Positions 39,301 to 54,200 of a stretch of DNA of 64,000 nucleotides are shown here, piece after piece. A model generated the notes under the pieces. It was not told the DNA's origin and did no database searches. It saw nothing but the letters and a program-made list of their open reading frames with translations. The stretch comes from Klebsiella sp. BIGb0138 (GTDB lineage Bacteria > Pseudomonadota > Gammaproteobacteria > Enterobacterales > Enterobacteriaceae), in the NCBI RefSeq assembly GCF_004342285.1, contig NZ_SMCV01000007.1, forward strand, positions 248,001 through 312,000. The letters are read 5' to 3'. The first letter of the stretch is position 1; each line of letters opens with the position of its first letter. The translations under genes were made by a program, and so were the position numbers.

Positions 39301-40230
39301 ATGCTCGCTACGCTGACGAGGCTGTTCCCGCTATGGGCGCTGCTGCTCTCTGTTCTGGCCTATTACACGCCGTCAACCTTTACGCCCGTTGGCCCCTGGG
39401 TCACCACCCTGCTGATGCTGATCATGTTCGGGATGGGCGTACACCTGAAACTGGACGACTTTAAGCGCGTTCTGTCGCGCCCGGCGCCGGTGGCGGCGGG
39501 AATTTTTCTCCACTATCTGGTGATGCCGCTTGCCGCCTGGGTGCTGGCGTGGCTGTTCCGTATGCCGCCGGAGCTGTCCGCCGGCATGGTGCTGGTCGGC
39601 AGCGTCGCCAGCGGCACGGCTTCAAACGTGATGATCTACCTGGCGAAAGGCGATGTGGCGCTGTCCGTCACCATCTCTTCCGTTTCGACGCTGGTCGGCG
39701 TGGTGGCGACGCCGCTGCTGACGCGGCTGTATGTCGATGCCCATATTCAGGTCGACGTGATGGGTATGCTGCTCAGTATCCTGCAAATCGTGGTGATCCC
39801 GATTGCGCTGGGGCTGATCATTCACCATATGCTGCCGAAAGTGGTGAAAGCGGTTGAGCCTTTCCTGCCCGCTTTCTCGATGATCTGCATTCTGGCGATC
39901 ATCAGCGCGGTGGTGGCCGGTTCCGCATCGCATATCGCCTCCGTTGGCCTGGTGGTGATTGTCGCGGTGATCCTGCACAACGCCATTGGCCTGCTCGGCG
40001 GCTACTGGGGCGGGCGGCTGTTCGGTTTTGACGAATCGACCTGCCGGACGCTGGCGATTGAAGTGGGGATGCAAAACTCCGGTCTTGCTGCGGCGCTGGG
40101 GAAAATCTACTTCGGCCCGCTCGCCGCCCTGCCGGGGGCGCTGTTCTCGGTCTGGCACAACCTGTCCGGTTCGCTGCTGGCCGGCTACTGGTCCGGGAAA
40201 CCGACCGTGAAAAAAGGAAATAAACGCTAA
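39301..40230 (+). CDS. panS: PanS-like bile acid:sodium symporter family transporter
   Basis: A 309-residue inner membrane protein with about ten hydrophobic segments of the BASS (bile acid:sodium symporter) family. Landmarks are [45 protein letters not shown] and [19 protein letters not shown] with the family's conserved Glu and Asn/Gln. In Salmonella the corresponding protein PanS transports ketopantoate, pantoate and pantothenate. That substrate is inferred from similarity to the remembered sequence type. CAAGGAAAACAAC precedes the start. It stands alone between lysC and yjbD, with a terminator on each side. Confidence 0.85.
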
Positions 40231-40240
40231 CAGCGCGTCG

Positions 40241-40265
40241 CCCGGGCCGACGGCCCGGGTATTTT
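40241..40265 (+). terminator. Terminator after panS
   Basis: CCCGGGCC / GGCCCGGG with a GAC loop, then TATTTT. Stable stem with a short T-tract. Confidence 0.75.
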
Positions 40266-40357
40266 ACCCTTCGCGTCCCCTTCTGCCAGGCTAACGCGCT
40301 GTCCGTCAGCCCGTGATTACCGTACACTGGGTTATCCGGCAGACTGAGGGCACCACT

Positions 40358-40630
40358 ATGGCACTTCCCCGCATTACGCAAAAAGAGATGACCGAGCGCG
40401 AGCAGCGCGAACTCAAAACGCTGCTTGACCGGGCCCGGATTGCACACGGCCGTCCGCTGACCAACGCCGAGACCAATGCCGTCAAAAAAGAGTACATCAA
40501 CAAACTGATGGCGCTGCGTGAAGCAGAGGCCAAAAAAGCCCGCCAGGTAAAGAAAAAGCAGGCTTACAAACCCGATAGCGAAACGTCATTCTCATGGTCG
40601 GCGAGTACGCCGACGCGCGGCAGACGTTAA
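40358..40630 (+). CDS. yjbD: DUF3811 protein YjbD
   Basis: A small basic 90-residue protein that begins [20 protein letters not shown] and continues with [20 protein letters not shown]. It is helical and charged, with a Lys-rich stretch near residue 65 and the end [13 protein letters not shown]. It matches E. coli YjbD; the function is unknown. The start at 40358 follows GAGGGCACCACT; an upstream Met at 40313 is not conserved. Its last codon and stop overlap the convergent rluF stop by four bases. Confidence 0.93.
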
Positions 40631-41496
40631 CGCCCTTTCTTTTTACGCCCCGGCTGAGTAAAACGTTTCCCGTTTGACGCCGGGCGCCCTTTCTCATTGG
40701 CCTTTTCCACTTTCACTACCGGGCGCTTAATTCCGGCCGTTTTCGGTTTGGCCTTCGCCTTGGGTTTGGCCTCAGACGACGAATTCTCAATCAGTTTAAA
40801 CAGCGCCACCAGCTCATCATCCGTCAGGTCTCGCCACTCGCCGAGCGGTAACCCCGACAGCCCGACGTTCATAATCCGCGTGCGCTCAAGCTTAGTGACT
40901 TCATAGCCAAAGTACTCGCACATACGGCGAATCTGCCGGTTAAGCCCCTGCACCAGCGTAATGCGGAACACGAACGGCGCTTCCTTGCGGACTTTGCACT
41001 TCTTCGTCACCGTCCCAAGGATCGGCACCCCTACGCCGAGACCACGAATAAACTCATCGGTCACCGGTTTATCGACCGTCACCAGATACTCTTTTTCGTG
41101 ATCGTTCCCGGCGCGCAGGATCTTATTCACCAGATCGCCATGGTTGGTCAGGAAGATCAGCCCCTGGGAATCTTTGTCCAGTCGACCAATGGGGAAAATA
41201 CGTTTGCTGTGGTTAACAAAGTCCACAATGTTGTCGCGTTCGCTGTCTTCAGTGGTACTGACAATGCCCACCGGCTTATTCAGGGCGATGAACACCAGAT
41301 CTTCGGCCTCGCGCGGCTCAATCGCCTGACCGTTTACCTTCACGACATCGCCAGGGTTGACCCGATCGCCAATGGTCGCTCGCTTACCATTGATAAAAAC
41401 ATTGCCTTGTTCAATGTAGCGATCCGCTTCGCGACGCGAGCAGATGCCGCTTTCACTGATGTACTTATTTAATCGGGTTGATGAGTCTGGCAGCAT
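40627..41496 (-). CDS. rluF: 23S rRNA pseudouridine(2604) synthase
   Basis: RluF modifies U2604 of 23S rRNA (and tRNA-Tyr U35 in E. coli). The 289-residue protein has an S4 RNA-binding domain at the N-terminus ([21 protein letters not shown]). The RsuA/RluB/E/F catalytic domain has the nucleophilic Asp in [19 protein letters not shown] and the RluF-type [17 protein letters not shown] basic Lys/Pro/Ala-rich tail (from about residue 245) ends in GRKKKGR. The size agrees with E. coli (290). It converges on yjbD with a four-base overlap. Confidence 0.96.
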
Positions 41497-41672
41497 AAAT
41501 TCTCCTGTAAAAGCGAAATATACCTCAGCCTGCGGGCAATCAAAAATAATCGCGTACCTCCGCCCTGAGGCTAAATGTGATCTGCCGCGCCTTTCTACAC
41601 AAAAGTGTCCCGGGCGATGGGTTGCAACTTTGCCTGGCGAAAATAAGCAGAATCAAACGATTAGCTTAAACG

Positions 41673-41684
41673 GCACAAACGTGC
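41673..41684. promoter_or_regulatory. Candidate SorC operator 1
   Basis: GCACAAACGTGC, a near-perfect palindrome with extra flanking G/C pairing (GGCAC...GTGCC). It matches operator 2 at 11 of 12 positions; the centres are 143 bases apart. Confidence 0.6.
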
Positions 41685-41815
41685 CATCTCCCGACCGCCC
41701 CATAAGCAAATGTGCAAAATAAACCACCAGCCAGCGCGGGTGAAATGGGCGAAAATTGCTTTGTCGTGCGCGACTGATGGGGTTATATCAGATCAAGAGA
41801 GCAAGAATGTCATTT

Positions 41816-41827
41816 GCACAAATGTGC
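41816..41827. promoter_or_regulatory. Candidate SorC operator 2
   Basis: GCACAAATGTGC, extended to TTTGCACAAATGTGCA. It ends directly before the AGGAG of sorC, so a bound protein could block transcription or, with operator 1, form a loop. Confidence 0.6.
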
Positions 41828-41839
41828 AGGAGCCCGAAG

Positions 41840-42793
41840 ATGGCGATCGAAAACAGCGACGATATCCGCTTAATCGTAAAAGTTGCCCAGCTCTATTATG
41901 AGCAGGACCTGACCCAGGCGCAGATTGCTCGCGAACTGGGTATTTACCGCACCACTATCAGCCGCCTGCTGAAACGCGGCCGCGAGCAGGGTATTGTCAC
42001 TATCGCCATCAACTATGACTACAACGAAAATCTGTGGCTGGAGCAGCAGCTGAAGCAAAAATTTGGCCTCAAAGAGGCGGTTGTCGCCTCCTGCGGCTCC
42101 CTGCTGGAAGAGGACCAGCTGAACACCATCGGGCAACATGGCGCTCAGTTGGTCGACCGCCTGCTTGAGCCGGGCGATATCATCGGTTTTTCCTGGGGAC
42201 GCGCGGTCCGGGCGCTGGTCGAAACCTTGCCGCAGGCCAGCCAGTCGCGGCAGGTCATTTGCGTGCCGATTATCGGCGGCCCCTCCGGCAAACTGGAGAG
42301 TCGCTATCATGTGAACACGCTGACCTACGGGGCGGCGGCCAGACTCAAGGCCGAGTCGCATCTGGCGGACTTTCCGGCGCTGCTGGACAACACCCTGATT
42401 CGCAACGGCATCATGCAGTCCCAGCACTATCAGACCATTTCCTCCTACTGGGAAAATCTCGACGTCGCCCTGGTGGGGATCGGCTCACCGGCGATTCGTA
42501 ATGGCGCTAACTGGCATGCGTTTTATGGTAGTGAAGAGAGCGACGATCTCAATGCTCGCCACGTCGCCGGCGATATTTGCTCACGCTTTTATGATATCAA
42601 CGGCAGCGCTGTGGAAACCAATATGAATGAAAAAACGCTCGCCATTGATATCGCCAGATTAAAACACGCGCGTTATTCCGTAGGTATTGCCCTTGGCGAA
42701 GAAAAATACACCGGTATTATTGGCGCATTACGCGGTGGTTATATTAATTGTCTGGTAACGAATCGAGAAACCGCAGAGCGATTACTGAAGTAA
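41840..42793 (+). CDS. sorC: Sorbose operon regulator SorC
   Basis: SorC is the sugar-responsive regulator of L-sorbose use, founder of the SorC/DeoR-type family with a sugar-phosphate-isomerase-like effector domain. The start at 41840 (MAIENSDDIRLIVKVAQLYY) has GCAGGAG upstream and gives 317 residues, close to the 315 of Klebsiella SorC. The HTH is LTQAQIARELGIYRTTISRLLKRG (near 24-47). The effector domain includes GDIIGFSWGRAVRALVE and VCVPIIGGPSGKLESRYHVN-type blocks. It is first in the operon, with its putative operators directly in front. Confidence 0.96.
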   Translation: MAIENSDDIRLIVKVAQLYYEQDLTQAQIARELGIYRTTISRLLKRGREQGIVTIAINYDYNENLWLEQQLKQKFGLKEAVVASCGSLLEEDQLNTIGQHGAQLVDRLLEPGDIIGFSWGRAVRALVETLPQASQSRQVICVPIIGGPSGKLESRYHVNTLTYGAAARLKAESHLADFPALLDNTLIRNGIMQSQHYQTISSYWENLDVALVGIGSPAIRNGANWHAFYGSEESDDLNARHVAGDICSRFYDINGSAVETNMNEKTLAIDIARLKHARYSVGIALGEEKYTGIIGALRGGYINCLVTNRETAERLLK

Positions 42794-42860
42794 CAGTCTT
42801 TTTCTATTTACGCAGCGGGCGCTGCGCGGGATCCTTTTATCTGAAAATGAGATGACTATT

Positions 42861-43664
42861 ATGCAAACGTGGCTAAATCTGCAAGACAAAATCATTATTG
42901 TGACCGGAGGCGCGTCGGGAATTGGTCTGGCGATTGTCGACGAGTTATTAAATCTCGGGGCCAATGTCCAGATGACCGATATTCACGGCGGCGACAAATA
43001 TCAGAATAGCGATCGCTACCAATTCTGGCCTACGGATATCTCCAGCGCCAGTGAGGTTAACCACACCGTAGAACAGATTATTCAGCGTTACGGGCGAATT
43101 GATGGACTGGTCAATAATGCCGGGGTGAATTTCCCGCGTCTGCTGGTCGATGAGAAAGCGCCTGCGGGGCGCTACGAGTTAAATGAAGCCGCCTTCGAGA
43201 AAATGGTCAACATCAACCAGAAAGGGGTTTTCTTCATGTCGCAGGCGGTGGCGCGGCAGATGGTGAAACAGCGCGAAGGCGTCATTGTTAACGTCTCATC
43301 GGAAAGCGGGCTGGAAGGTTCGGAAGGCCAGAGCTGCTATGCCGCGACGAAAGCGGCGCTGAATAGCTTCACCCGTTCCTGGTCGAAAGAGCTGGGGAAA
43401 CACGGCATCCGCGTCGTGGGCGTTGCGCCAGGCATCCTCGAAAAAACCGGGCTACGCACGCCGGAATATGAAGAGGCGCTGGCCTGGACCCGCAATATCA
43501 CCGTCGAGCAGCTCCGCGCGGGATATAGCAAAAATGCCATTCCAATCGGTCGCTCCGGCCGTCTGAGCGAGGTAGCCGACTACGTCTGCTATCTGCTGTC
43601 AGAGCGTGCCAGCTATATAACCGGAGTAACCACTAACATTGCCGGCGGGAAAACCCGCGGCTAA
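42861..43664 (+). CDS. sorD: D-glucitol-6-phosphate (sorbitol-6-P) 2-dehydrogenase SorD
   Basis: SorD oxidises D-glucitol-6-phosphate, made by SorE, to fructose-6-phosphate with NAD. The 267-residue short-chain dehydrogenase starts at 42861 (MQTWLNLQDKIIIVTGGASG). It has the nucleotide motif TGGASGIG, NNAG in DGLVNNAGVN, the catalytic Ser in VNVSSESG and the YxxxK motif in CYAATKAALNSF. The C-terminus reads ITGVTTNIAGGKTRG. Near-identity with the Klebsiella sor enzyme is evident from memory. It follows sorC by 67 bases and precedes sorF by 9. Confidence 0.96.
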   Translation: MQTWLNLQDKIIIVTGGASGIGLAIVDELLNLGANVQMTDIHGGDKYQNSDRYQFWPTDISSASEVNHTVEQIIQRYGRIDGLVNNAGVNFPRLLVDEKAPAGRYELNEAAFEKMVNINQKGVFFMSQAVARQMVKQREGVIVNVSSESGLEGSEGQSCYAATKAALNSFTRSWSKELGKHGIRVVGVAPGILEKTGLRTPEYEEALAWTRNITVEQLRAGYSKNAIPIGRSGRLSEVADYVCYLLSERASYITGVTTNIAGGKTRG

Positions 43665-43673
43665 GGAGCCAAC

Positions 43674-44081
43674 ATGGTGAATGCTATCTTCTGCGCCCAC
43701 GGTCAGCTGGCCGGCGCCATGCTCGATTCGGTACGCATGGTATATGGCGATGTCAGGGTCAGCGCGGTGGCGTTTGTGCCGGGTGAGAATGCCGGGGACA
43801 TCGCCGCGAAGCTAGAAAAGTTAGTAAGTGCTCACAGCACTGAAGAGTGGCTGATTGCCGTGGATTTACAGTGCGGCAGCCCATGGAATGCCGCCGCCGG
43901 ACTGGCGATGAACAACCCGCGCCTCAAGGTCATCAGCGGCCTCTCTTTGCCGCTGGCGCTGGAGCTGGTGGACAACCAGGAGACCATGAGCGCGGAGGCC
44001 CTATGCGACCACCTGACCACCATCGCCAGCCAGTGCTGCGTCGTCTGGCGGCAGCCGGAAACCATTGAGGAGGATTTCTGA
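43674..44081 (+). CDS. sorF: Sorbose PTS EIIA component SorF
   Basis: SorF is the phosphocarrier EIIA of the mannose-class L-sorbose PTS. The 135-residue protein begins MVNAIFCAHGQLAGAMLDSV; His9 in CAHG is the expected phosphorylation site, accepting phosphate from HPr. The mannose-family EIIA block DLQCGSPWNAAAGLAM is present. The stop overlaps the sorB start (TGATG), so the two are translationally coupled. Confidence 0.95.
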   Translation: MVNAIFCAHGQLAGAMLDSVRMVYGDVRVSAVAFVPGENAGDIAAKLEKLVSAHSTEEWLIAVDLQCGSPWNAAAGLAMNNPRLKVISGLSLPLALELVDNQETMSAEALCDHLTTIASQCCVVWRQPETIEEDF

Positions 44082-44575
44082 TGAATATCACGCTCGCCCG
44101 TATTGATGACCGGCTGATCCACGGTCAGGTCACCACCGTCTGGTCAAAAGTGGCTAACGCCCAGCGCATTATTATCTGTAACGATGAGGTCTATAACGAT
44201 GAGGTGCGGCGGACTTTACTTCGTCAGGCCGCCCCGCCGGGGATGAAAGTCAACGTCGTTAATCTCGAAAAAGCGGTTGCCGTTTATCACAACCCGCAAT
44301 ACCAGAATGAGACCGTGTTTTACTTATTTACTAATCCCCAGGATGCTTTAACGATGGTCCGCCAGGGGGTGAAAATTGCCACCTTAAATATTGGCGGGAT
44401 GGCCTGGCGACCGGGTAAAAAACAATTAACCAAGGCGGTATCCTTAGATGAGGCAGATATTCATGCATTTCGCGAACTGGATAAATCAGGGGTGAAGCTG
44501 GATTTGCGCGTCGTCGCATCGGATCCGTCGATCAATATTCTGGATAAAATAGCTGAACAATCCATTACCGAATAA
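44081..44575 (+). CDS. sorB: Sorbose PTS EIIB component SorB
   Basis: SorB is the cytosolic EIIB of the sorbose PTS and passes phosphate from SorF to the incoming sugar. The 164-residue protein has the mannose-family EIIB signature ARIDDRLIHGQVTTVWSK with the phosphorylated His14, and later NDEVYNDEVRRTLLRQAAP and NIGGMAWRPGKKQL. It overlaps the sorF stop by one base. A hairpin-rich 91-base gap follows before sorA. Confidence 0.95.
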   Translation: MNITLARIDDRLIHGQVTTVWSKVANAQRIIICNDEVYNDEVRRTLLRQAAPPGMKVNVVNLEKAVAVYHNPQYQNETVFYLFTNPQDALTMVRQGVKIATLNIGGMAWRPGKKQLTKAVSLDEADIHAFRELDKSGVKLDLRVVASDPSINILDKIAEQSITE

Positions 44576-44582
44576 AAATAGC

Positions 44583-44635
44583 GCCTGTATTAATCTGCGC
44601 GCCTGAAAGACGCGATTATTAATGCCGTAACAGGC
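44583..44635. repeat. Nested inverted repeat between sorB and sorA
   Basis: GCCTGT / ACAGGC, then ATTAAT / ATTAAT, then GCGCG / CGCG form a nested hairpin in the sorB-sorA gap. It may set the relative amounts of soluble (SorF/B) and membrane (SorA/M) PTS parts by RNA processing. Confidence 0.6.
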
Positions 44636-44666
44636 AGGGATTCATATACCCTCAAGGTGACATATT

Positions 44667-45464
44667 ATGGAAATAAGTACCCTACAAATCATCGCCATAT
44701 TTATATTTTCCGGTATTGCCGGAATGGGCAGCGTACTGGATGAGTTCCAGACCCACCGTCCATTAATTGCCTGTACCGTGATTGGGTTAATCCTTGGTGA
44801 TTTAAAAACCGGGATTATGCTCGGCGGCACTCTGGAGCTGATCGCGCTCGGCTGGATGAACGTCGGCGCCGCGCAATCACCAGATTCGGCGCTGGCAAGC
44901 ATTATTTCAGCCATTCTGGTGATTGTCGGCCAGCAAAGCATTGCCACCGGCATCGCCATCGCGCTACCGGTCGCGGCGGCAGGCCAGGTGTTAACCGTCT
45001 TCGCCCGCACCATCACCGTGGTCTTTCAACACGCGGCAGATAAGGCTGCGGAAGAGGCGCATTTCCGCACGATCGACATGCTGCACATCTCGGCACTGGG
45101 CGTTCAGGCGCTGCGCGTCGCCATTCCGGCGCTGGTGGTCTCGCTGTTTGTCAGCGCCGACATGGTCAGCAGCATGCTGAACGCCATCCCGGAATTCGTC
45201 ACCCGCGGCCTGCAAATCGCCGGAGGGTTCATTGTGGTGGTGGGTTACGCCATGGTCCTGCGCATGATGGGCGTGAAATATCTGATGCCCTTCTTTTTCC
45301 TCGGTTTTCTCGCGGGAGGCTACCTCGATTTCAGCCTGCTGGCCTTCGGCGGCGTGGGCGTCATCATCGCGCTGATCTACATCCAGCTGAACCCGCAATG
45401 GCGCAAGGCCGAGCCCCAACCAACCGCCGCCTCTTCCACTGCCCTTGACCAACTTGACGACTGA
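44667..45464 (+). CDS. sorA: Sorbose PTS EIIC component SorA
   Basis: SorA is a membrane subunit of the sorbose PTS. The 265-residue protein begins MEISTLQIIAIFIFSGIAGM and is hydrophobic through most of its length. The mannose-class EIIC block GDLKTGIMLGGTLELIALGWMNVGAAQSPDSA lies near residues 47-78. The short charged C-terminus is LNPQWRKAEPQP.... GAGGTATATG-like spacing is poor, but CAAGGTGACAT lies upstream. It is followed by sorM with 11 bases between the stop and start. Confidence 0.95.
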   Translation: MEISTLQIIAIFIFSGIAGMGSVLDEFQTHRPLIACTVIGLILGDLKTGIMLGGTLELIALGWMNVGAAQSPDSALASIISAILVIVGQQSIATGIAIALPVAAAGQVLTVFARTITVVFQHAADKAAEEAHFRTIDMLHISALGVQALRVAIPALVVSLFVSADMVSSMLNAIPEFVTRGLQIAGGFIVVVGYAMVLRMMGVKYLMPFFFLGFLAGGYLDFSLLAFGGVGVIIALIYIQLNPQWRKAEPQPTAASSTALDQLDD

Positions 45465-45475
45465 TGGAGCCCATT

Positions 45476-46300
45476 ATGGAACCGAAAAAACTGACGCAAG
45501 GCGACCTGGTGAGCATCTTTCTGCGCTCCAACCTGCAGCAGGCCTCTTTCAACTTTGAACGCATCCACGGTCTCGGGTTTTGCTACGACATGATCCCGGC
45601 GATCAAACGGCTCTATCCGCTGAAAGAGGATCAGGTAGCGGCGCTGAAACGCCATCTGGTGTTCTTCAACACCACCCCCGCCGTCTGCGGACCGGTGCTG
45701 GGTGTGACGGCGGCGATGGAAGAGGCGCGCGCTAACGGCGCGGCCATCGACGATGGGGCAATCAACGGCATCAAAGTTGGGTTGATGGGGCCGCTGGCGG
45801 GGGTCGGCGATCCGCTGGTCTGGGGCACCTTACGCCCGATCACCGCGGCCCTCGGCGCTTCGCTGGCGCTCTCCGGCAACATCCTCGGTCCACTGCTGTT
45901 CTTCTTTATTTTCAATGCGGTGCGTCTGGCCATGAAATGGTATGGCCTGCAGCTCGGCTTTCGCAAAGGGATCAATATCGTCAGCGATATGGGCGGCAAC
46001 CTGCTGCAAAAACTGACCGAAGGCGCCTCGATTCTGGGCCTGTTCGTGATGGGCGTGCTGGTTACCAGGTGGACCACCATCAACGTGCCGTTGGTGGTAT
46101 CGCAAACGCCGGGCGCCGATGGCGCCACCGTCACCATGACCGTACAGAACATCCTCGATCAGCTCTGCCCCGGCCTGCTGGCCCTGGGCCTGACGCTGCT
46201 GATGGTGCGCCTGCTGAACAAAAAAGTTAACCCGGTCTGGCTGATCTTCGCCCTGTTCGGCTTAGGGATTATCGGCAATGCGCTGGGCTTCTTGTCCTGA
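45476..46300 (+). CDS. sorM: Sorbose PTS EIID component SorM
   Basis: SorM is the EIID membrane subunit found only in mannose-class PTS. The start at 45476 (MEPKKLTQGDLVSIFLRSN) has GGAGCCC upstream and gives 274 residues. Conserved EIID blocks are RSNLQQASFNFERIHGLGF, FNTTPAVCGPVLGVTAAMEE and GIKVGLMGPLAGVGDPLVWGTLRPI. Membrane helices occupy the C-terminal half. A Met four codons earlier overlaps the sorA stop and is less likely. Confidence 0.95.
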   Translation: MEPKKLTQGDLVSIFLRSNLQQASFNFERIHGLGFCYDMIPAIKRLYPLKEDQVAALKRHLVFFNTTPAVCGPVLGVTAAMEEARANGAAIDDGAINGIKVGLMGPLAGVGDPLVWGTLRPITAALGASLALSGNILGPLLFFFIFNAVRLAMKWYGLQLGFRKGINIVSDMGGNLLQKLTEGASILGLFVMGVLVTRWTTINVPLVVSQTPGADGATVTMTVQNILDQLCPGLLALGLTLLMVRLLNKKVNPVWLIFALFGLGIIGNALGFLS

Positions 46301-46307
46301 TTATTCA

Positions 46308-46326
46308 GCCCCGGCGCTGCCGGGGC
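46308..46326 (+). terminator. Hairpin between sorM and sorE
   Basis: GCCCCGGC / GCCGGGGC with a three-base loop directly after sorM. There is no T-run, so it is probably an mRNA-protecting or partially terminating structure inside the operon. Confidence 0.5.
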
Positions 46327-46374
46327 GACTTCAACAAGCTAACCCCGACAGATAAAGGGGATGAGGTGGTAAAC

Positions 46375-47604
46375 ATGAAAACAACGGCTTTACGTCTTTA
46401 CGGTAAACGCGACCTGCGCCTGGAAACCTTCGAGCTACCGGCCATGCAGGATGATGAGATCCTCGCCCGCGTGGTGACCGACAGTCTGTGCCTCTCTTCC
46501 TGGAAAGAGGCCAATCAGGGCGAAAATCATAAGAAGGTGCCGGACGATGTGGCGGTCAATCCGATCATTATCGGCCATGAATTCTGCGGTGAAATCCTCG
46601 CGGTGGGGAAAAAATGGCAGCATAAATTCCATGCCGGGCAGCGCTACGTCATCCAGGCGAACCTCCAGCTGCCGGATCGCCCTGATTGCCCCGGCTACTC
46701 CTTCCCGTGGATCGGCGGCGAAGCCACCCACGTGGTGATCCCCAACGAAGTCATGGAGCAAGATTGCCTGCTTAGCTGGGAGGGCGAGAGCTGGTTTGAA
46801 GGTTCGCTGGTTGAACCGCTCTCCTGTGTCATTGGCGCATTCAACGCCAACTATCACCTGCAGGAAGGTACCTACAACCACACCATGGGCATCCGGCCGC
46901 AGGGCCGTACGCTGATCCTCGGCGGTACCGGCCCCATGGGGCTGCTGGCGATCGACTACGCCCTGCATGGGCCGGTCAACCCTTCCCTGCTGGTGGTGAC
47001 CGATACCAACAAACCGAAGCTGAGCTATGCCCGTCAGCATTATCCGTCAGAACCGCAGACGCTCATTCACTACCTGGACGGGCACGATGCCGGACGCGAG
47101 ACGCTGATGGCGCTAACCGGCGGCCACGGCTTTGACGATATTTTCGTCTTCGTGCCGAAAGAGGAGCTGATTACCATGGCCTCTTCGCTGCTGGCCCCCG
47201 ACGGCTGTCTGAACTTCTTTGCCGGCCCGCAGGACCAGCAGTTCAGCGCCCCAATCAACTTTTACGATGTCCACTACGCCTTTACTCATTACGTGGGTAC
47301 CTCCGGCGGCAATACCGATGACATGCGCGCCGCCGTGGCGCTGATGCAGACGAAAAAAGTGCAGACGGCGAAAGTCGTCACCCATATCCTTGGGCTCAAT
47401 GCGGCGGGGGAAACGACTCTCGATTTACCGGCGGTCGGCGGTGGTAAAAAGCTGGTGTATACCGGGAAATCTCTGCCTCTGACGCCCCTTGGCAAGATCG
47501 CCGACCCGGATCTGGCGGCGATCGTGGAGCGCCACCATGGGATCTGGTCCGTGGAAGCGGAGCGCTATCTGCTGGCCCATGCCCCGGACATTGCCCATGA
47601 TTAA
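46375..47604 (+). CDS. sorE: L-sorbose-1-phosphate reductase SorE
   Basis: SorE reduces L-sorbose-1-phosphate, the PTS product, to D-glucitol-6-phosphate for SorD. The 409-residue protein belongs to the zinc-type medium-chain dehydrogenases. It has IIGHEFCGEILAVG with the His-Glu pair of the catalytic domain, GSLVEPLSCVIGAF with Glu-Pro-Leu-Ser, and the nucleotide motif LILGGTGPMGLLAIDY. ATGAGGTGG precedes the ATG at 46375. Its last codons (...CATGATTAA) overlap the start of the next gene. Confidence 0.95.
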   Translation: MKTTALRLYGKRDLRLETFELPAMQDDEILARVVTDSLCLSSWKEANQGENHKKVPDDVAVNPIIIGHEFCGEILAVGKKWQHKFHAGQRYVIQANLQLPDRPDCPGYSFPWIGGEATHVVIPNEVMEQDCLLSWEGESWFEGSLVEPLSCVIGAFNANYHLQEGTYNHTMGIRPQGRTLILGGTGPMGLLAIDYALHGPVNPSLLVVTDTNKPKLSYARQHYPSEPQTLIHYLDGHDAGRETLMALTGGHGFDDIFVFVPKEELITMASSLLAPDGCLNFFAGPQDQQFSAPINFYDVHYAFTHYVGTSGGNTDDMRAAVALMQTKKVQTAKVVTHILGLNAAGETTLDLPAVGGGKKLVYTGKSLPLTPLGKIADPDLAAIVERHHGIWSVEAERYLLAHAPDIAHD

Positions 47605-48409
47605 TCGCGAAACGCAGCTCTGTATGTCGCTGGCCGGCCGCCCGGGTAACTTCGGCACCCGTTTTCACAACTACCTGTATGAGAAACTGGGGCTCAATTA
47701 TCTCTACAAAGCCTTTACCACACAGGACATCGCCGCCGCGGTAAGAGGCGTTCGGGCGCTGGGTATTCGCGGTTGCGCGGTATCTATGCCGTTTAAAGAG
47801 AGCTGCATGCCCTTTCTTGACGCCATTGACCCTTCAGCCAGGGTGATTGACTCGGTGAATACCATCGTTAACGACGACGGCAGGTTGACCGGTTTCAACA
47901 CCGACTATATTGCGGTGAAGAGCCTGATCGACAGCCACCGGCTGGATAGCGCCGGCAAAGTGATGATCCAGGGCAGCGGCGGTATGGGCAAAGCGGTCAT
48001 CGCCGCCTTTCGTGACGCCGGCTTTCGCGATGTGGTTATCGCCGCCCGCAATCGTGACAGCGGCCTGGCGCTGGCCAGACAGTATGGCTTTCAGTGGCAG
48101 CCGCGGCCGGATGGGATCCCGGCGGATGTTCTGGTCAACGTCACGCCGTTAGGCATGGCGGGCGGGGCGCATAGCGCCACATTGTCCTTCAGCCCGGCGA
48201 TGGTGGATCGGGCCAGTATCGTCTTCGACGTGGTCGCCCTGCCGCCAGAAACGCCGCTGATTCGCCTGGCGCAGCAGCGGGGAAAACACCTCATCAGCGG
48301 GGCGGAAGTCATCGCCTTGCAGGCGGTGGAACAATTCGCCCTGTATACCGGGGTACGCCCGGATGCGGCGCTGGTCACTGAAGCCGCGGCGTTTGCTCGT
48401 ACGGAATAA
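47597..48409 (+). CDS. Shikimate 5-dehydrogenase-like protein at the end of the sor operon
   Basis: A 270-residue protein of the shikimate dehydrogenase superfamily, closest in character to the HI0607/SDH-like branch. The N-domain has CMSLAGRPGNFGTRFHNYLYE, YKAFTTQDIAAAVRGVRALG and GCAVSMPFKESCMPFLD with the catalytic Lys. The cofactor domain has QGSGGMGKAVIAAF, then VNVTPLGMAGG and SGAEVIALQAVEQF. The start (47597) overlaps the sorE end by eight bases, so the two are translationally coupled. It lacks the SxS substrate motif of AroE in its usual form. It may act on a sorbose- or quinate-related compound; this is inference. Confidence 0.85.
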   Translation: MINRETQLCMSLAGRPGNFGTRFHNYLYEKLGLNYLYKAFTTQDIAAAVRGVRALGIRGCAVSMPFKESCMPFLDAIDPSARVIDSVNTIVNDDGRLTGFNTDYIAVKSLIDSHRLDSAGKVMIQGSGGMGKAVIAAFRDAGFRDVVIAARNRDSGLALARQYGFQWQPRPDGIPADVLVNVTPLGMAGGAHSATLSFSPAMVDRASIVFDVVALPPETPLIRLAQQRGKHLISGAEVIALQAVEQFALYTGVRPDAALVTEAAAFARTE

Positions 48410-48413
48410 ACCG

Positions 48414-48440
48414 AGGCGCCAGGGAAGGCGCGTTTTCGTT
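48414..48440 (+). terminator. Possible sor operon terminator
   Basis: GCGCC / GGCGC with an AGGGAA loop, followed by GTTTTCGTTT. The stem is short but correctly placed after the last gene. Confidence 0.5.
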
Positions 48441-48623
48441 TAGCCTCTGCCGGAATCCCCACATGGTGTTCGCCGCGCCCCCTCACTCTTCCCCTTCGCC
48501 ACGCGATAAGCCAGGTTCCCTGACGCCGCGACCTTGCAACAGCGTGAGCCATATCAGCAAGCGCGCAGACAAGCGGTGGTAGGATCCGCAACCGACTCTG
48601 TAACCTGGCTAACTGGAGAAAAG

Positions 48624-49313
48624 ATGGAACTGCTGTTATTGAGTAACTCGTCGCTGCCGGGCAAAGCATGGCTGGAACATGCGCTGCCGCTGATTGCCGG
48701 ACAGCTAAATGGGCGCCGTTCCGCGGTGTTTGTCCCCTTTGCCGGGGTGATGCAAACCTGGGATGACTACACGGCGAAAGCCGCCGCGGCGCTCGCTCCG
48801 CTTGGCGTTTCAGTCACCGGCATCCACAGCGTAGCCGACCCTGTCGCGGCCATTGAGACGGCCGAAGTGGTGATTGTCGGCGGGGGGAATACGTTCCAGT
48901 TGCTGAAAACCTGCCGCGAGCGCGGGCTGCTGGCGCCGATCGTCGATGTTGTTAAGCGTGGCGCCCTGTACATCGGCTGGAGCGCGGGCGCTAACCTCGC
49001 CTGTCCGACCATCCGCACCACCAACGATATGCCGATTGTCGACCCGCAAGGTTTTGCTGCGCTGGGCCTGTTCCCGTTGCAGATCAACCCGCACTTTACC
49101 AACGCCCTGCCGGAAGGACATCAGGGTGAAACCCGTGAACAGCGTATTCGCGAACTGCTGGCGGTGGCGCCGGAGCTGACGATTATCGGTTTGCCGGAAG
49201 GCAACTGGATTCAGGTGACGCAGGGGCACGCGACGCTCGGCGGCCCGAACCCAACGCTGGTATTCCGCGCCGGTGAGGAAGCGGTGGCCCTGAAAGCCGG
49301 GCATCGCTTTTAA
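48624..49313 (+). CDS. pepE: Alpha-aspartyl dipeptidase (peptidase E)
   Basis: PepE cleaves dipeptides with N-terminal aspartate in the cytosol. The start at 48624 ([20 protein letters not shown]) has CTGGAGAAA upstream and gives 229 residues. The nucleophilic Ser is in [14 protein letters not shown] (near 120), within a class I amidotransferase-like fold. [12 protein letters not shown] and the His/Glu region [19 protein letters not shown] are present. It stands alone between the sor operon and the convergent yjbB. Confidence 0.96.
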
Positions 49314-49329
49314 CCACAGAGGGATCGAT

Positions 49330-49363
49330 TCCCGGCGGGCGGCATTAGCCAGCGCCGGGCTAT
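49330..49363. repeat. REP-like palindrome between pepE and yjbB
   Basis: CCCGGCGGGCGGCATTAGCC followed by AGCGCCGGGC resembles the Klebsiella REP unit. It lies in the convergent spacer. Confidence 0.5.
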
Positions 49364-49408
49364 CGACCCTTGCCCCGGTCAGGCCGCGCGCCCGGGAAAT
49401 CCTGCGCC

Positions 49409-51040
49409 TTAATATTCATCGCGATCGTCATCTTCATCCGGCTGCTCCATCACGCTATATGCCACCGAACAGAACAGCGAGTTCAGGCGCTTCATATCGC
49501 CAAGTAATCCGAGGTGCAGCGAGCTGGTCTCAATACTCTGCACGTTCTGCTGGTGCAGACGATCGACGTGCGCGTGCGAGTAGCGCCGGTTCATAATGCG
49601 GAAACGGTGCTTGTTACGACGCAGACGGCGGGCGCTCGGCACGTCGCTGGAGAAAAAGACCGACATCGCCAGCTGCAGGTTGCTAAGCAGCTGATCGTAT
49701 AGCCCATCGAGCTCTTTAAGCCCTTCGACGGAGAAGGCACGCCGCGCCGCCAGCGATTTATCGGCGATTTCGCTGCCCATTCTCTCCACAATATCGGAGG
49801 CCTGCTCCAGGTTGAGCGCCATTTCGATGATCTCCGCCCAACGCCGGGATTCCTCTTCCGCCAGCTCATCTTTCGGCATCCGCGCCAGATACAGCTTGAT
49901 CGCGGTATAGAGCACGTTGATGTCGTCCGCCAGCCGGCGCAGCTCTTTCTCCTCCCGCGGCTCACCGTGCATCACCTTGCGCAAACCGTTCAGCATCTGC
50001 TCCATGGCATCGCCGATACGCAACGTTTCGCGCGCGGCATTCGCTAACGCCAACGCGGGGGTATCCAGCGCCGACGTGTCCAGATGCTTAGGCTTAAGAT
50101 GGAGGTCCAGCTCGGGATCTTCGCGAATCAGACGTTTGCAGAGCCTGGCCATCGGTTCGGCAAAGGGGACCATCGCCACGCAGCGAATCAGGTTGTAGAA
50201 GACGTGGAAGTAAATCACCAGCTCCGATTCCGGTAACGGCATCCGGTGCATCGCGTTCGCCAGCACGTGCACAAACGGCAAAATAATCAGGCTGCCCACC
50301 AGCTTGAACAGCAGGCTGCCCAGCGCGACACGACGGGCGGACGCGTTGGCGGCGCCGTTGTTGATCATCGCGAGGATCCCCGAGCCGAGGTTGGCGCCAA
50401 TGACCAGACACAGCGCGACCGGGAACGAAATGACCCCGGTTGACGTCAGCGTGGCGGTGAGCAGCACCGCCGCCAGGCTGGAGTAGCTGATGATGGCGAA
50501 CATGGCGCCAATCAACGCATCCAGCATAATATCGCCGGTCAACGAGGCGAAAATCACCTGAACGCCGTTGGCCTGGGTGATGGGGTGGACCGCCTGCACG
50601 ATCAGCTCCAGGGCGAGTAAAATCAGCCCCAGCCCGATCCCTACCCGCCCCAGCTGGCCGGCCCGCGTCTGTTTGCGGCCGAGGAAAAAAATCACCCCGA
50701 TAAAAATCAGCAGCGGCGACAGCCACGACAGGTCGAAGGTCAGTACCCGCGCCATCAGCGCGGTACCGACGTCGGCGCCGAGCACTATCACCAGCGCCGG
50801 CGTCAGCGCCACCAAATCCTGGGCGACAAACGACGTCACCAGCATGGTGGTGGCATTACTGCTCTGGACCAGCGCGGTGACGCCTATACCGGCGCAGAAC
50901 GCGAGCGGTTTTTTCTCAACGCTACTACTGAGGACGGCGCGCAGACGCGCGCCAAACACGCGCATGACGCCGGTACGAACGATATGGGTGCCCCAGACCA
51001 GCAGGGCGACAGCAGAAAGCAGATGCAGCAGAGTTAACAC
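49409..51040 (-). CDS. yjbB: Na+/phosphate cotransporter family protein YjbB
   Basis: A 543-residue inner membrane protein. The N-terminal half has two Na/Pi-cotransporter (NptA/PNaS) repeats, with the family's QSS motif in GVTALVQSSNATTMLVTSFVA and a second repeat around YSSLAAVLLTATLTSTGVISF. The C-terminal half (from about 340) is a PhoU-like helical domain with EQMLNGLRKVMHGE and LNLEQASDIVERMG. E. coli YjbB exports phosphate when overproduced. The end (PDEDDDRDEY) is strongly acidic. It reads in the same direction as metH, with a 232-base gap to it. Confidence 0.95.
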   Translation of the reverse strand: MLTLLHLLSAVALLVWGTHIVRTGVMRVFGARLRAVLSSSVEKKPLAFCAGIGVTALVQSSNATTMLVTSFVAQDLVALTPALVIVLGADVGTALMARVLTFDLSWLSPLLIFIGVIFFLGRKQTRAGQLGRVGIGLGLILLALELIVQAVHPITQANGVQVIFASLTGDIMLDALIGAMFAIISYSSLAAVLLTATLTSTGVISFPVALCLVIGANLGSGILAMINNGAANASARRVALGSLLFKLVGSLIILPFVHVLANAMHRMPLPESELVIYFHVFYNLIRCVAMVPFAEPMARLCKRLIREDPELDLHLKPKHLDTSALDTPALALANAARETLRIGDAMEQMLNGLRKVMHGEPREEKELRRLADDINVLYTAIKLYLARMPKDELAEEESRRWAEIIEMALNLEQASDIVERMGSEIADKSLAARRAFSVEGLKELDGLYDQLLSNLQLAMSVFFSSDVPSARRLRRNKHRFRIMNRRYSHAHVDRLHQQNVQSIETSSLHLGLLGDMKRLNSLFCSVAYSVMEQPDEDDDRDEY

Positions 51041-51100
51041 GGATTGTTGTTCTCCTTATTACCCGACGGATAAATGCCGATAACCCCGTCCAGGATTCCC

Positions 51101-51127
51101 CCGGCGGCGCTGCGCTTAGCCGGGCTA
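51101..51127. repeat. REP unit upstream of yjbB
   Basis: CCGGCGGCGCTGCGCTTAGC and CGGGCTAC form the usual REP palindrome found scattered in Klebsiella chromosomes. It lies between metH and yjbB. Confidence 0.6.
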
Positions 51128-51272
51128 CATAGTCCGGGGCAATCTCAGTCAGAGCAGATCGTCCTGAATCAATACCCCAGTATAAGGGTTTAGCAGCAAT
51201 AAAGAGACAGGGCGCCCACAGAGCGCCCGCTAAGTTGTAAGTTAAGATGACAGATTTGTGACAGGCCGCGAT

Positions 51273-54200
51273 TTAGTCCGCGTCGTACCCCAGATTGGGC
51301 GCCAGCCAGCGCTCCACCTCGGCGGGGGTCATGCCTTTACGCCGGGCATAATCCTCCACCTGATCGCGCTGTATTTGCGCCACCGCGTAGTACTTGCTGT
51401 CGGGATGACTGAAATACCAGCCGGAAACCGAAGCGCCCGGCCACATGGCGAACGATTCGGTGAGTTTCATCCCGGTATGCGCTTCGACATCCAGCAGCTC
51501 CCAGATGACCGCTTTTTCCGTGTGCTCCGGGCAGGCCGGATAGCCCGGCGCCGGACGAATCCCCTGGTAGTTTTCGCGAATCAGCTCCTCGTTGCTGAGG
51601 TTCTCATTCGCCGCATAGCCCCAGTAGACTTTACGCACCCGCTCATGGAGATATTCGGCAAAGGCTTCGGCCAGGCGGTCGGCAATCGCTTTGACCATGA
51701 TCTTGTTGTAATCATCGTGCTGGGCATCAAACGCCTCCGCCAGCGCGTCTTCCTCCAGCCCGCCGGTGACCGCAAAAGCGCCGAGATAGTCGGCTTTGCC
51801 GCTGAGCTTCGGCGCCACGAAATCGGCGAGGCAGTAGTTGGCGAAGCCGACTTTCTCGGTCTGCTGACGCAGATGATGGCTGACCGTCAGCACATGGGTA
51901 CGGGTTTCATCGCGATAGATTTCAATATCATCCCCCACCCGGTTAGCCGGGAAGAGTCCCACCACGCCGCGCGGATTCAGCGTCTTCTCTGCGCTCAGTT
52001 TATCCAGCATGTCGTTAGCATCTTTGAACAACCGCTGCGCCTCTTCGCCCACCACCTCATCTTCCAGAATGCGCGGATACTTCCCGGCCAGCGACCAGGT
52101 CATAAAGAACGGCGTCCAGTCGATATAGTTACGCAGGGTTTCGATGCTGGCTTCAACGCTCTGCACCCCCAGGCGGTGAGCGACCGGCGGCGTATAGCTT
52201 GCCCAGTCAAAGGCCAGATCGTTCTCGCGGGCGGCCTGTAATGTGACCGGCGGCGTACGCGGCTTCTTGCGTCCATGCTGGATGCGCACGGTTTCGTACT
52301 CTTTACGGGTGCGCGCGACAAAATCGTCATGCTGCGTCGCGGAGAGTAACGCCGAGACCACGCCCACGGTGCGCGAGGCGTTCTGCACGTAAACCGTCGG
52401 GCCGCTGTAGTTCTGCTCGATTTTGACCGCCGTATGGGCTTTCGAGGTGGTCGCGCCGCCAATCAGCAGCGGAATGGTAAAGCCCTGGCGCTCCATCTCT
52501 TTCGCCACGTTCACCATTTCGTCCAGCGACGGCGTAATCAGCCCGGAAAGACCAATCAGGTCGGCATTCACTTCGCGGGCGGTTTTGAGGATCTTATCCG
52601 CCGGGACCATCACGCCCAGATCGATGATTTCGTAGTTATTACACTGCAGCACCACGCCGACGATATTTTTGCCGATATCGTGCACATCGCCTTTAACGGT
52701 CGCAATTACCATCTTGCCGTTGCTGGAGCCCTTTTCCTTGCTGGCTTCAATATACGGTTCCAGATAGGCCACCGCCTGCTTCATCACGCGGGCCGATTTG
52801 ACCACCTGCGGCAGGAACATTTTGCCCTCGCCGAACAGATCGCCAACCACGTTCATGCCGTCCATCAGCGGGCCTTCGATAACTTCAATCGGCCGGGCGG
52901 CCTGCTGGCGCGCCTCTTCGGTATCCAGCTCGATAAACTCGGTAATGCCTTTCACCAGCGAGTATTCAAGACGTTTTTTCACGTCCCAGCTGCGCCATTC
53001 CGCCTGCTGAGCGTTGGCGGAGTCGTCCGTTTTACTGCCGCGATATTTTTCCGCCAGCTCCAGCAGACGCTCGGTCCCCTCATCGTGACGGTTGAGGATC
53101 ACGTCTTCGACGGCATCGCGCAGCTCGGCTGGCAGATCGTCATAAATGGCCAGCTGACCGGCGTTAACAATCCCCATGTCCATGCCGTTACGAATGGCGT
53201 AGTACAGGAAGACGGCGTGAATCGCCTCGCGGACCGGATCGTTACCGCGGAATGAGAAGGAAACGTTGGAGACGCCGCCGGAAATCAGCGCGTGCGGCAG
53301 CTCGCGTTTTATGTCTTCACAGGCGCCGATAAAGTCCTGAGCATAGTTGTTGTGCTCTTCAATACCGGTGGCGACGGCGAAGATATTGGGGTCAAAAATA
53401 ATATCTTCCGGCGGGAAGCCCACCTCTTCGGTCAGAATCTTGTACGCCCGGCGGCAAATTTCAATTTTACGCTGGCGGGTATCGGCCTGCCCCACTTCGT
53501 CAAAGGCCATGACCACCACGGCGGCGCCGTAACGGCGCACCTTCTTCGCATGCTCGACAAAGGCCTCGACGCCCTCTTTCATCGAGATAGAGTTGACGAT
53601 GCCTTTACCCTGGATGCATTTCAGCCCCTTTTCGATGACATCCCATTTTGAGGAGTCGATCATAATCGGCACCCGGGCAATGTCGGGCTCGCCGGCAATC
53701 AGGTTGAGGAAACGCACCATCGCCGCTTCCGCGTCGAGCATCCCCTCATCCATATTGATATCAATAATCTGCGCGCCGCTTTCCACCTGCTGGCGGGCGA
53801 CGTCCAACGCTTCGTTATACTTTTCTTCTTTAATCAGGCGCTTGAACTTCGCTGAGCCGGTCACGTTGGTCCGCTCGCCGACGTTCACAAACAGGCTGTC
53901 GTCACCGATATTCAGCGGCTCAAGCCCGGCCAGACGGCAGGCCACAGGAATTTCGGGAAGCCGGCGTGGCGCAAGCCCTTCCACCGCGCGGCTCATTGCT
54001 GCGATATGTTCCGGCGTGGTGCCGCAGCAGCCGCCGACGATGTTGAGGAAGCCTGACTCCGCCCACTCGCGAATCTGCGCCGCCATGGTATCGGCGTCCA
54101 GATCGTATTCGCCAAAGGCGTTGGGCAACCCGGCATTGGGGTGCGCGGTCACGTAGCATTCGGCAATCCGCGACAGCTCCTGCACGTACTGACGCAGCTC

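What the first reader, a model, noticed from the sequence alone, without database searches (positions are those of the whole stretch)
47597..48409. Shikimate-dehydrogenase-like gene translationally coupled to sorE
Its start lies inside the last codons of sorE (8-base overlap), and a terminator-like hairpin follows it, so it is built as an eighth gene of the sorbose operon. Sorbose breakdown needs only SorE and SorD after the PTS, so the role of this enzyme is open. Its catalytic Lys region and nucleotide motif are intact. It could repair or use a side product of sorbose metabolism.
Basis: partly seen in the sequence, partly recalled or inferred. Interest (0 to 1): 0.5.

Follow-up and report, generated by a model that had tools for sequence, protein, structure and literature searches.

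The report
SdhL-class dehydrogenase gene ending sorbose operon
The gene is a known but unassigned relative of shikimate dehydrogenase that sits at the end of the bacterium's L-sorbose operon; relatives also turn up in fructose and sucrose uptake operons, which suggests it handles a side product of these sugars rather than making aromatic compounds.

Summary
In detail: an intact 270-aa gene (47597-48409) overlaps the end of sorE by 8 bases, with a modest hairpin behind it. It is an SdhL-class protein (NCBIfam NF009202; closest structure HI0607), not a shikimate dehydrogenase proper. It scores below the AroE cut-off; in 166 SdhL proteins the catalytic Lys/Asp are invariant, but AroE's second substrate-gripping serine is always glycine.

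It does not always follow sorE: it is directly behind 9 of 15 sorE orthologues in 295 Enterobacteriaceae genomes. In E. coli it is intact in 174 genomes, all beside sorE, and a deletion remnant in 2651. A 2025 paper shows an ST131 strain without it growing on sorbose, so sorbose use does not need it.

New here: SdhL genes recur in ketohexose PTS operons (sor, fruBKA, a fructose-type EIIBC beside an SgrR-like gene, sucrose scr): 30 of 167 loci, at least 12 context changes on the tree. At one site sdhL stays while scr, scr+sor or a sorC-like gene lies upstream. Most loci (125 of 168 labels) show no such link.

Best guess: an accessory NADP(H) enzyme for a keto-sugar (phosphate) by-product, perhaps 5-keto-fructose(-1-phosphate). 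The substrate is unproven.

The parts
47597..48409 (+). sdhL: SdhL-class shikimate-dehydrogenase-like gene, 270 aa
   Evidence: translation; NCBIfam NF009202 455.8 bits against cut-off 306; HI0607/1npy E 1.4e-109, Z 39.2
47597..47604 (+). 8-nt overlap of the sdhL start with the sorE end
   Evidence: same overlap in 9 of 13 other junctions
46375..47604 (+). sorE, L-sorbose-1-phosphate reductase (zinc-type dehydrogenase)
   Evidence: Pfam ADH_N/ADH_zinc_N; annotated sorE in E. coli matches
41840..42793 (+). sorC, SorC-family sugar-binding regulator (start chosen at the internal ATG)
   Evidence: Pfam Sugar-bind 263.7 bits
42852..43664 (+). sorD, sorbitol-6-phosphate dehydrogenase-type SDR
   Evidence: NCBIfam PRK06171 493 bits
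43674..44081 (+). sorF, PTS IIA
   Evidence: TIGR00824
44081..44575 (+). sorB, PTS IIB
   Evidence: TIGR00854
44667..45464 (+). sorA, PTS IIC
   Evidence: TIGR00822
45464..46300 (+). sorM, PTS IID
   Evidence: TIGR00828
48416..48431 (+). terminator-like hairpin with T-rich tail to about 48441
   Evidence: fold z -2.0
48624..49313 (+). pepE, downstream neighbour outside the operon
   Evidence: NCBIfam PRK05282

Best explanation
The gene is an SdhL-class oxidoreductase translated as the last, accessory cistron of the sor operon. It keeps the family's Lys-Asp catalytic pair and probably uses NADP(H), but it has lost the serine clamp by which AroE holds the shikimate carboxylate. Its substrate is therefore probably not shikimate. 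I infer a keto-sugar or keto-sugar phosphate that arises from, or enters with, ketohexoses taken up by PTS. My most specific guess is 5-keto-D-fructose or its 1-phosphate. Oxidising C5 of either D-fructose or L-sorbose gives this same diketone; it is toxic to bacteria; and a member of the SDH fold family already reduces it. Shown here: operon position, family, active-site pattern, and recurrence in fructose, sucrose and sorbose PTS operons. From a paper: dispensability for sorbose growth. Inferred: cofactor, the keto-sugar/phosphate class of substrate, and the 5-keto-fructose step. Confidence in the general keto-sugar role is about 0.65; in 5-keto-fructose(-1-P) specifically about 0.22. The number below is for the statement taken as a whole.
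For: Recurrence: a PTS EIIC gene lies within 4.5 kb of SdhL in 36 of 167 loci, against 1 locus with an EIIC only farther out. Among 120 non-plasmid loci with at least 8 kb on both sides, 23 have an EIIC match within 4 kb and 4 have one at 4-8 kb; by the maps, 3 of those 4 (L109, L195, L198) are parts of the same fru operon. The ketohexose-type contexts are 12 sor loci besides the window, 7 fruBKA, 8 SgrR/fru-EIIBC and 3 scr, i.e. 30 of 167 (families). On a 166-protein FastTree this state needs at least 12 changes (56 of 161 inner branches weakly supported). At one chromosomal site sdhL and its downstream genes stay while scr, scr remnant plus sor, or a sorC-like gene alone lies upstream. The neighbouring regulators are SorC-type, D-fructose-responsive ScrR/LacI-type, or SgrR-like. 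Active site: K67, N88, D103, Q242 and G20 in 166 of 166, R15 in 163, R22 in 158, R151 in 150. Precedent: an SDH-family 5-ketofructose reductase has solved structures (7cok, 7col), and the Tatumella enzyme uses NADPH only and yields D-fructose (PMC7954740, passages). 5-KF inhibits E. coli and B. subtilis, and 5-keto-fructose-1-phosphate is made by liver fructokinase (PMC9253636, part of the abstract and one passage).
Against: 125 of 168 context labels (167 loci plus the window) fall outside the sor, fru, scr, SgrR and SorC classes. The two named Pasteurellaceae loci follow genes that I read as gpsA-cysE from size and recall only; Pseudomonas and actinobacterial neighbours scanned have no sugar theme except one GH3 protein. 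KFR is no closer to SdhL in sequence (E 4.2e-16) or fold (Z 30.6, tied with AroE and YdiB) than ordinary SDHs, and KFR's substrate residues could not be compared. A C. pasteurianum putative shikimate dehydrogenase was inactive on 5-KF (PMC7954740). Most sor-positive E. coli lost the gene. Nothing here shows that any PTS imports 5-KF. Loci are not independent samples, 9 plasmid loci were picked by me from 24 hits, and 5 of the 29 EIIC panel members came from loci already seen.
Confidence: 0.45

Rival explanations
1. A passenger gene: SdhL does an unrelated housekeeping or repair reaction and merely shares the transcript; the sugar-operon neighbourhoods are coincidence or shared insertion sites.
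For: 125 of 168 labels fall outside the sugar-operon and regulator classes; 2651 E. coli genomes hold only a deletion remnant behind sorE while 2825 hold sorE; Kluyvera and two unnamed Enterobacteriaceae genomes have a sorC-like gene and sdhL without sorDFBAME.
Against: Recurrence with fructose, sucrose and sorbose PTS operons in Gammaproteobacteria, sphingomonads, Hydrogenophaga and a Microbacteriaceae bacterium; conserved 8-nt overlap in 9 of 13 junctions; near versus far flank control.
Confidence: 0.22
2. A genuine shikimate/quinate dehydrogenase, either an extra aromatic-pathway enzyme or one for shikimate breakdown.
For: Family name, conserved fold, intact Lys/Asp; the mSystems paper mentions sdhL together with upregulated shikimate-pathway genes.
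Against: TIGR00507 155.7 bits against cut-off 200.2; AroE's second clamp serine replaced by Gly in 166 of 166; the genome has another SDH with the HSKS motif (L002); none of the 40 neighbourhood proteins scanned was an aromatic-pathway enzyme. Very low shikimate activity of HI0607 is recalled from the literature, not checked.
Confidence: 0.12
3. An alternative enzyme of the main sorbose route, backing up SorE (sorbose-1-phosphate reduction) or SorD.
For: Operon position, and expression on sorbose in ST648 (PMC12817954).
Against: Also found in fruBKA and scr operons, where no such step exists; in the paper the ST131 strain, which lacks sdhL, uses sorbose.
Confidence: 0.08

Closest known systems
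HI0607 of Haemophilus influenzae (PDB 1npy), SdhL class / NCBIfam NF009202 (PRK12550)
   Same: 63% identity over 268 residues, Z 39.2; residues aligned throughout
   Different: The two named Pasteurellaceae relatives lie behind genes that I read, unscanned, as gpsA-cysE and not in a sugar operon; the class name SdhL is recalled and from PMC12817954
sdhL of E. coli (ST648 strain in PMC12817954; IAI39 examined here)
   Same: In IAI39 the gene lies directly after sorE with the same 8-nt overlap; the paper reports expression on L-sorbose in ST648
   Different: The paper calls it immediately upstream of the operon; in IAI39 it is downstream of sorE. The ST648 strain's sequence was not looked at
5-ketofructose reductase (PDB 7cok/7col; Tatumella KFR)
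   Same: SDH fold; the Tatumella enzyme is NADPH-dependent and acts on a ketohexose derivative
   Different: Only 23-24% identical, no closer than AroE/YdiB; substrate residues not compared
AroE shikimate dehydrogenase
   Same: Fold, catalytic Lys and Asp
   Different: Serine clamp absent; below AroE model cut-off

Membership tests
SdhL class (NCBIfam NF009202) | Score above curated cut-off | tested here: met
   455.8 bits, cut-off 306
SdhL class (NCBIfam NF009202) | Close relation to HI0607 | tested here: met
   1npy E 1.4e-109, Z 39.2, rmsd 1.4 over 268 residues
SdhL class (NCBIfam NF009202) | Very low shikimate turnover (recalled) | not testable with these tools
   needs enzyme assay
AroE shikimate dehydrogenase | Catalytic Lys and Asp (roles recalled) | tested here: met
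   K67 and D103 in 166 of 166
AroE shikimate dehydrogenase | Ser-x-Ser that holds the carboxylate (role recalled) | tested here: not met
   second Ser position is Gly in 166 of 166 SdhL; HSKS present in paralogue L002
AroE shikimate dehydrogenase | TIGR00507 cut-off | tested here: not met
   155.7 bits, cut-off 200.2
5-ketofructose reductase | Closer to KFR than to other SDHs | tested here: inconclusive
   7cok Z 30.6, tied with AroE/YdiB; E 4.2e-16, weaker than many AroE hits
5-ketofructose reductase | Reduces 5-keto-D-fructose with NADPH | not testable with these tools
   needs enzyme assay
sor operon core gene | Always behind sorE | tested here: not met
   9 of 15 sorE orthologues in 295 genomes
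sor operon core gene | Needed for sorbose use | not tested
   not tested here; the paper's sdhL-less ST131 strain grows on sorbose

The most novel reading that the evidence does not exclude
SdhL enzymes reduce 5-keto-D-fructose(-1-phosphate), the one diketone shared by fructose, sucrose and sorbose PTS pathways. They form an undescribed detoxification/salvage branch that returns it to fructose-1-P or sorbose-1-P, which would give the orphan HI0607 class a function.
Probability: 0.22. Interest if true: 0.75.

Novelty: new member of a known kind. Interest (0 to 1): 0.45.

Why it matters
SdhL proteins have had a solved structure since 2003 (1npy) but, as far as I recall, no physiological substrate. 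Their repeated presence in operons for three related ketohexose sources narrows the search to a handful of compounds. If it holds, it also corrects the routine label 'shikimate 5-dehydrogenase', under which one paper already mentions sdhL with the aromatic pathway.

Tried and rejected
KFR active-site comparison: the KFR alignment never came among those shown, 3 and 5, so it is untested. SgrS beside SgrR-like genes: no Rfam match to it in 8 loci scanned (L045, L136, L042 and L151 of the 12 first planned were left out for size); the one hit there was STnc410 in L143. No Rfam family in 40000-52000 of the window. EIIC hits in L090 and L123, L191, L151, L153 and L135 were not counted as ketohexose-type; the EIICs of the first five are identified only by panel match.

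How the 167 loci came about: 48 of the 49 places (all but the window), 20 of 39 new places, all 10 new places, the 80 best loci (of 561 candidates, itself a capped list, so biased to close relatives), and 9 of 24 plasmid hits, chosen by me. L001-L003 (own genome) and E. coli L141/L142 were left out; L004-L033 were replaced by longer stretches of the same genomes. L050 and L051 (broken SdhL copies) were dropped before the tree; two pairs of identical proteins remain in its 166 rows. A scan of the family of G775 found SdhL in 4 of 120 genomes; 3 of the 4 directly follow fruA.

Literature on SdhL with fructose, sucrose or sorbose operons: searches, judged from their listings, gave only PMC12817954 on point; PMC4052901 has no 'shikimate' or 'aroE' in its main text. 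Two SDH papers were not held.

Full report
OBSERVATION. The gene is real and intact: ATG 47597 to TAA 48409, 270 residues, starting inside the last codons of sorE, whose stop ends at 47604. A GC hairpin with T-rich tail follows (z -2.0). Upstream lie sorC, D, F, B, A, M, E in one direction with matching families. In 13 other sorE-sdhL junctions, including E. coli IAI39, the 8-nt overlap recurs in 9, a 1-nt spacer in 2, and longer gaps in 2 (144 nt in L037; roughly 60-70 nt in L146). pN/pS against the window copy is 0.14-0.20 for the 11 closer relatives and 0.29-0.35 for the two most distant; sorE gives 0.07-0.15 and 0.18-0.30 for the same pairs. So sdhL is maintained, somewhat more loosely than sorE.

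IDENTITY. NCBIfam NF009202 scores 455.8 bits (cut-off 306), while the AroE model TIGR00507 stays below its cut-off (155.7 against 200.2). The best solved structure is HI0607, 1npy. An AlphaFold model (mean pLDDT 91.8) matches 1npy at Z 39.2, rmsd 1.4 over 268 residues; ordinary AroE/YdiB and 5-ketofructose reductase tie near Z 30-31. In 166 SdhL proteins the positions of AroE's catalytic Lys and Asp (K67, D103) and N88 and Q242 are invariant. The second Ser of AroE's Ser-x-Ser (HSKS in the genome's paralogue L002) is Gly in all 166; R15 is kept in 163, R22 in 158, and R151, aligned with the Arg of the paralogue's NRT, in 150. The roles of these residues in AroE are recalled, not from a call. 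NADP(H) use and a non-carboxylate, possibly phosphorylated substrate are inferences from this pattern.

DOES IT FOLLOW sorE? In 295 Enterobacteriaceae genomes SdhL is present in 49, 47 of them over the family cut-off. SorE orthologues at about 70% identity or more occur in 15; SdhL is directly downstream in 9, elsewhere in the genome in 3, absent in 3 (coordinates compared by me). Thus 40 of 49 SdhL genes in this sample are not beside sorE. Of 5426 E. coli genomes, 2825 hold most of sorE and 174 hold SdhL, each beside sorE. 2651 hold, over at least 80% of a 151-base query, the tail of sorE with the remnant first seen in UTI89; 174 and 2651 add up to 2825, though I did not match the lists genome by genome. 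In UTI89 the start of sdhL survives and most of the rest is deleted. The simplest reading is that the gene was in the E. coli operon and was lost by deletion in most lineages. Swiatek and colleagues (PMC12817954; abstract, sections 27 and 28 and passages seen) report sdhL expression on L-sorbose only in ST648, its absence from ST131, and growth of an ST131 strain on L-sorbose. Sorbose growth does not need sdhL.

WHERE ELSE IT SITS. A PTS EIIC lies within 4.5 kb in 36; one more locus has an EIIC only farther away. Excluding plasmid records it is 30 of 158. In the 120 non-plasmid loci with 8 kb on both sides, 23 have an EIIC match within 4 kb and 4 at 4-8 kb, three of these being parts of the same fru operon (maps). 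In the smaller set of 73 loci with 9 kb on both sides it is 10 within 4.5 kb and 3 at 4.5-9 kb, 2 of the 3 also having a near one. Ketohexose-type contexts number 30 of 167: sor 12, fruBKA 7, SgrR-like/SdhL/fructose-type EIIBC 8, scr 3 (families of representatives). Examples: fruB-fruK-fruA-sdhL in Hydrogenophaga (L095); fruK-like, a 149-aa gene, fruA-like, sdhL in a Microbacteriaceae bacterium (L118); LacI-sdhL-fructose-bisphosphatase divergent from fruBKA on Novosphingobium and Sphingobium plasmids. A SorC-family gene directly before sdhL without the rest of sor occurs in 6 loci, among them a Priestia plasmid. On a FastTree of 166 proteins the ketohexose-PTS state changes at least 12 times (sor 3, fruBKA 4, SgrR-fru 3, scr 2 when counted singly; 56 of 161 inner branches are weak), so it is unlikely to be one inherited block. 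At one site in related genomes sdhL and its downstream genes stay while the upstream part is scr (L149, L150, L152), scrB-scrR plus complete sor (L146), or sorC-like only (L155); five other loci at the site have other upstream genes. The remaining contexts, 125 of 168 labels, include Pasteurellaceae, Pseudomonas and Actinobacteria without a visible sugar-operon theme in what I scanned.

MECHANISM. Taken together: an accessory oxidoreductase whose gene recurs beside ketohexose PTS systems and beside regulators of families that sense sugars or sugar phosphates (SorC, ScrR/FruR-type; SgrR's role in sugar-phosphate stress is recalled), with an active site that has lost the carboxylate clamp. Since oxidation at C5 turns both D-fructose and L-sorbose into the same diketone, 5-keto-D-fructose, and since an SDH-family enzyme already reduces it with NADPH (Tatumella KFR, PMC7954740, passages), I propose reduction of 5-keto-fructose or its 1-phosphate. 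5-KF inhibits E. coli and B. subtilis, and its 1-phosphate is formed by liver fructokinase (PMC9253636, part of the abstract and one passage). No result here shows that any PTS imports 5-KF, nor that SdhL acts on it; KFR is not specially close to SdhL, and one other putative SDH was inactive on 5-KF.

VERDICT. Ordinary as a gene (a member of a known class, adjacency to the sor operon already in print for E. coli), but its recurrence in several ketohexose operon types did not turn up in the searches listed and makes the orphan class testable. On checking I removed an unsupported count from the Against line and lowered the general keto-sugar figure slightly (0.7 to 0.65) because the link is absent in most loci; the overall confidence stands.

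Noticed in passing
L142 9223-9612 (E. coli UTI89); remnant in 2651 of 5426 E. coli genomes: sdhL survives only as a deletion remnant between sorE and pepE.
   Followed up: yes
L146 (G087:C1): Hybrid island: scrB- and scrR-like genes, then a complete divergent sor operon, then sdhL.
   Followed up: partly
L132 (NZ_MT039215.1): Conjugative Serratia proteamaculans plasmid carries sorCDFBAME-sdhL next to nif genes.
   Followed up: no
L133 (NZ_CP151862.1): A 425-kb Citrobacter freundii 'plasmid' carries rluF-sor-sdhL-pepE-metH with toxin-antitoxin genes in between, like a chromosomal segment.
   Followed up: no
L059: A 'Sphingomonas' contig carries a sorC-like/sdhL pair whose SdhL is the closest sister of a Priestia plasmid copy on the tree; possible contamination.
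   Followed up: no
L044-L046, L136, L143, L156, L158, L184: SgrR-like regulator divergent from sdhL with a fructose-type EIIBC downstream; no SgrS match in the six of these that were scanned (L045 and L136 not scanned).
   Followed up: partly
L149 9125-16433: scrK, an unassigned 482-aa gene, scrA, scrB, scrR, then sdhL: a sucrose operon followed by SdhL.
   Followed up: yes
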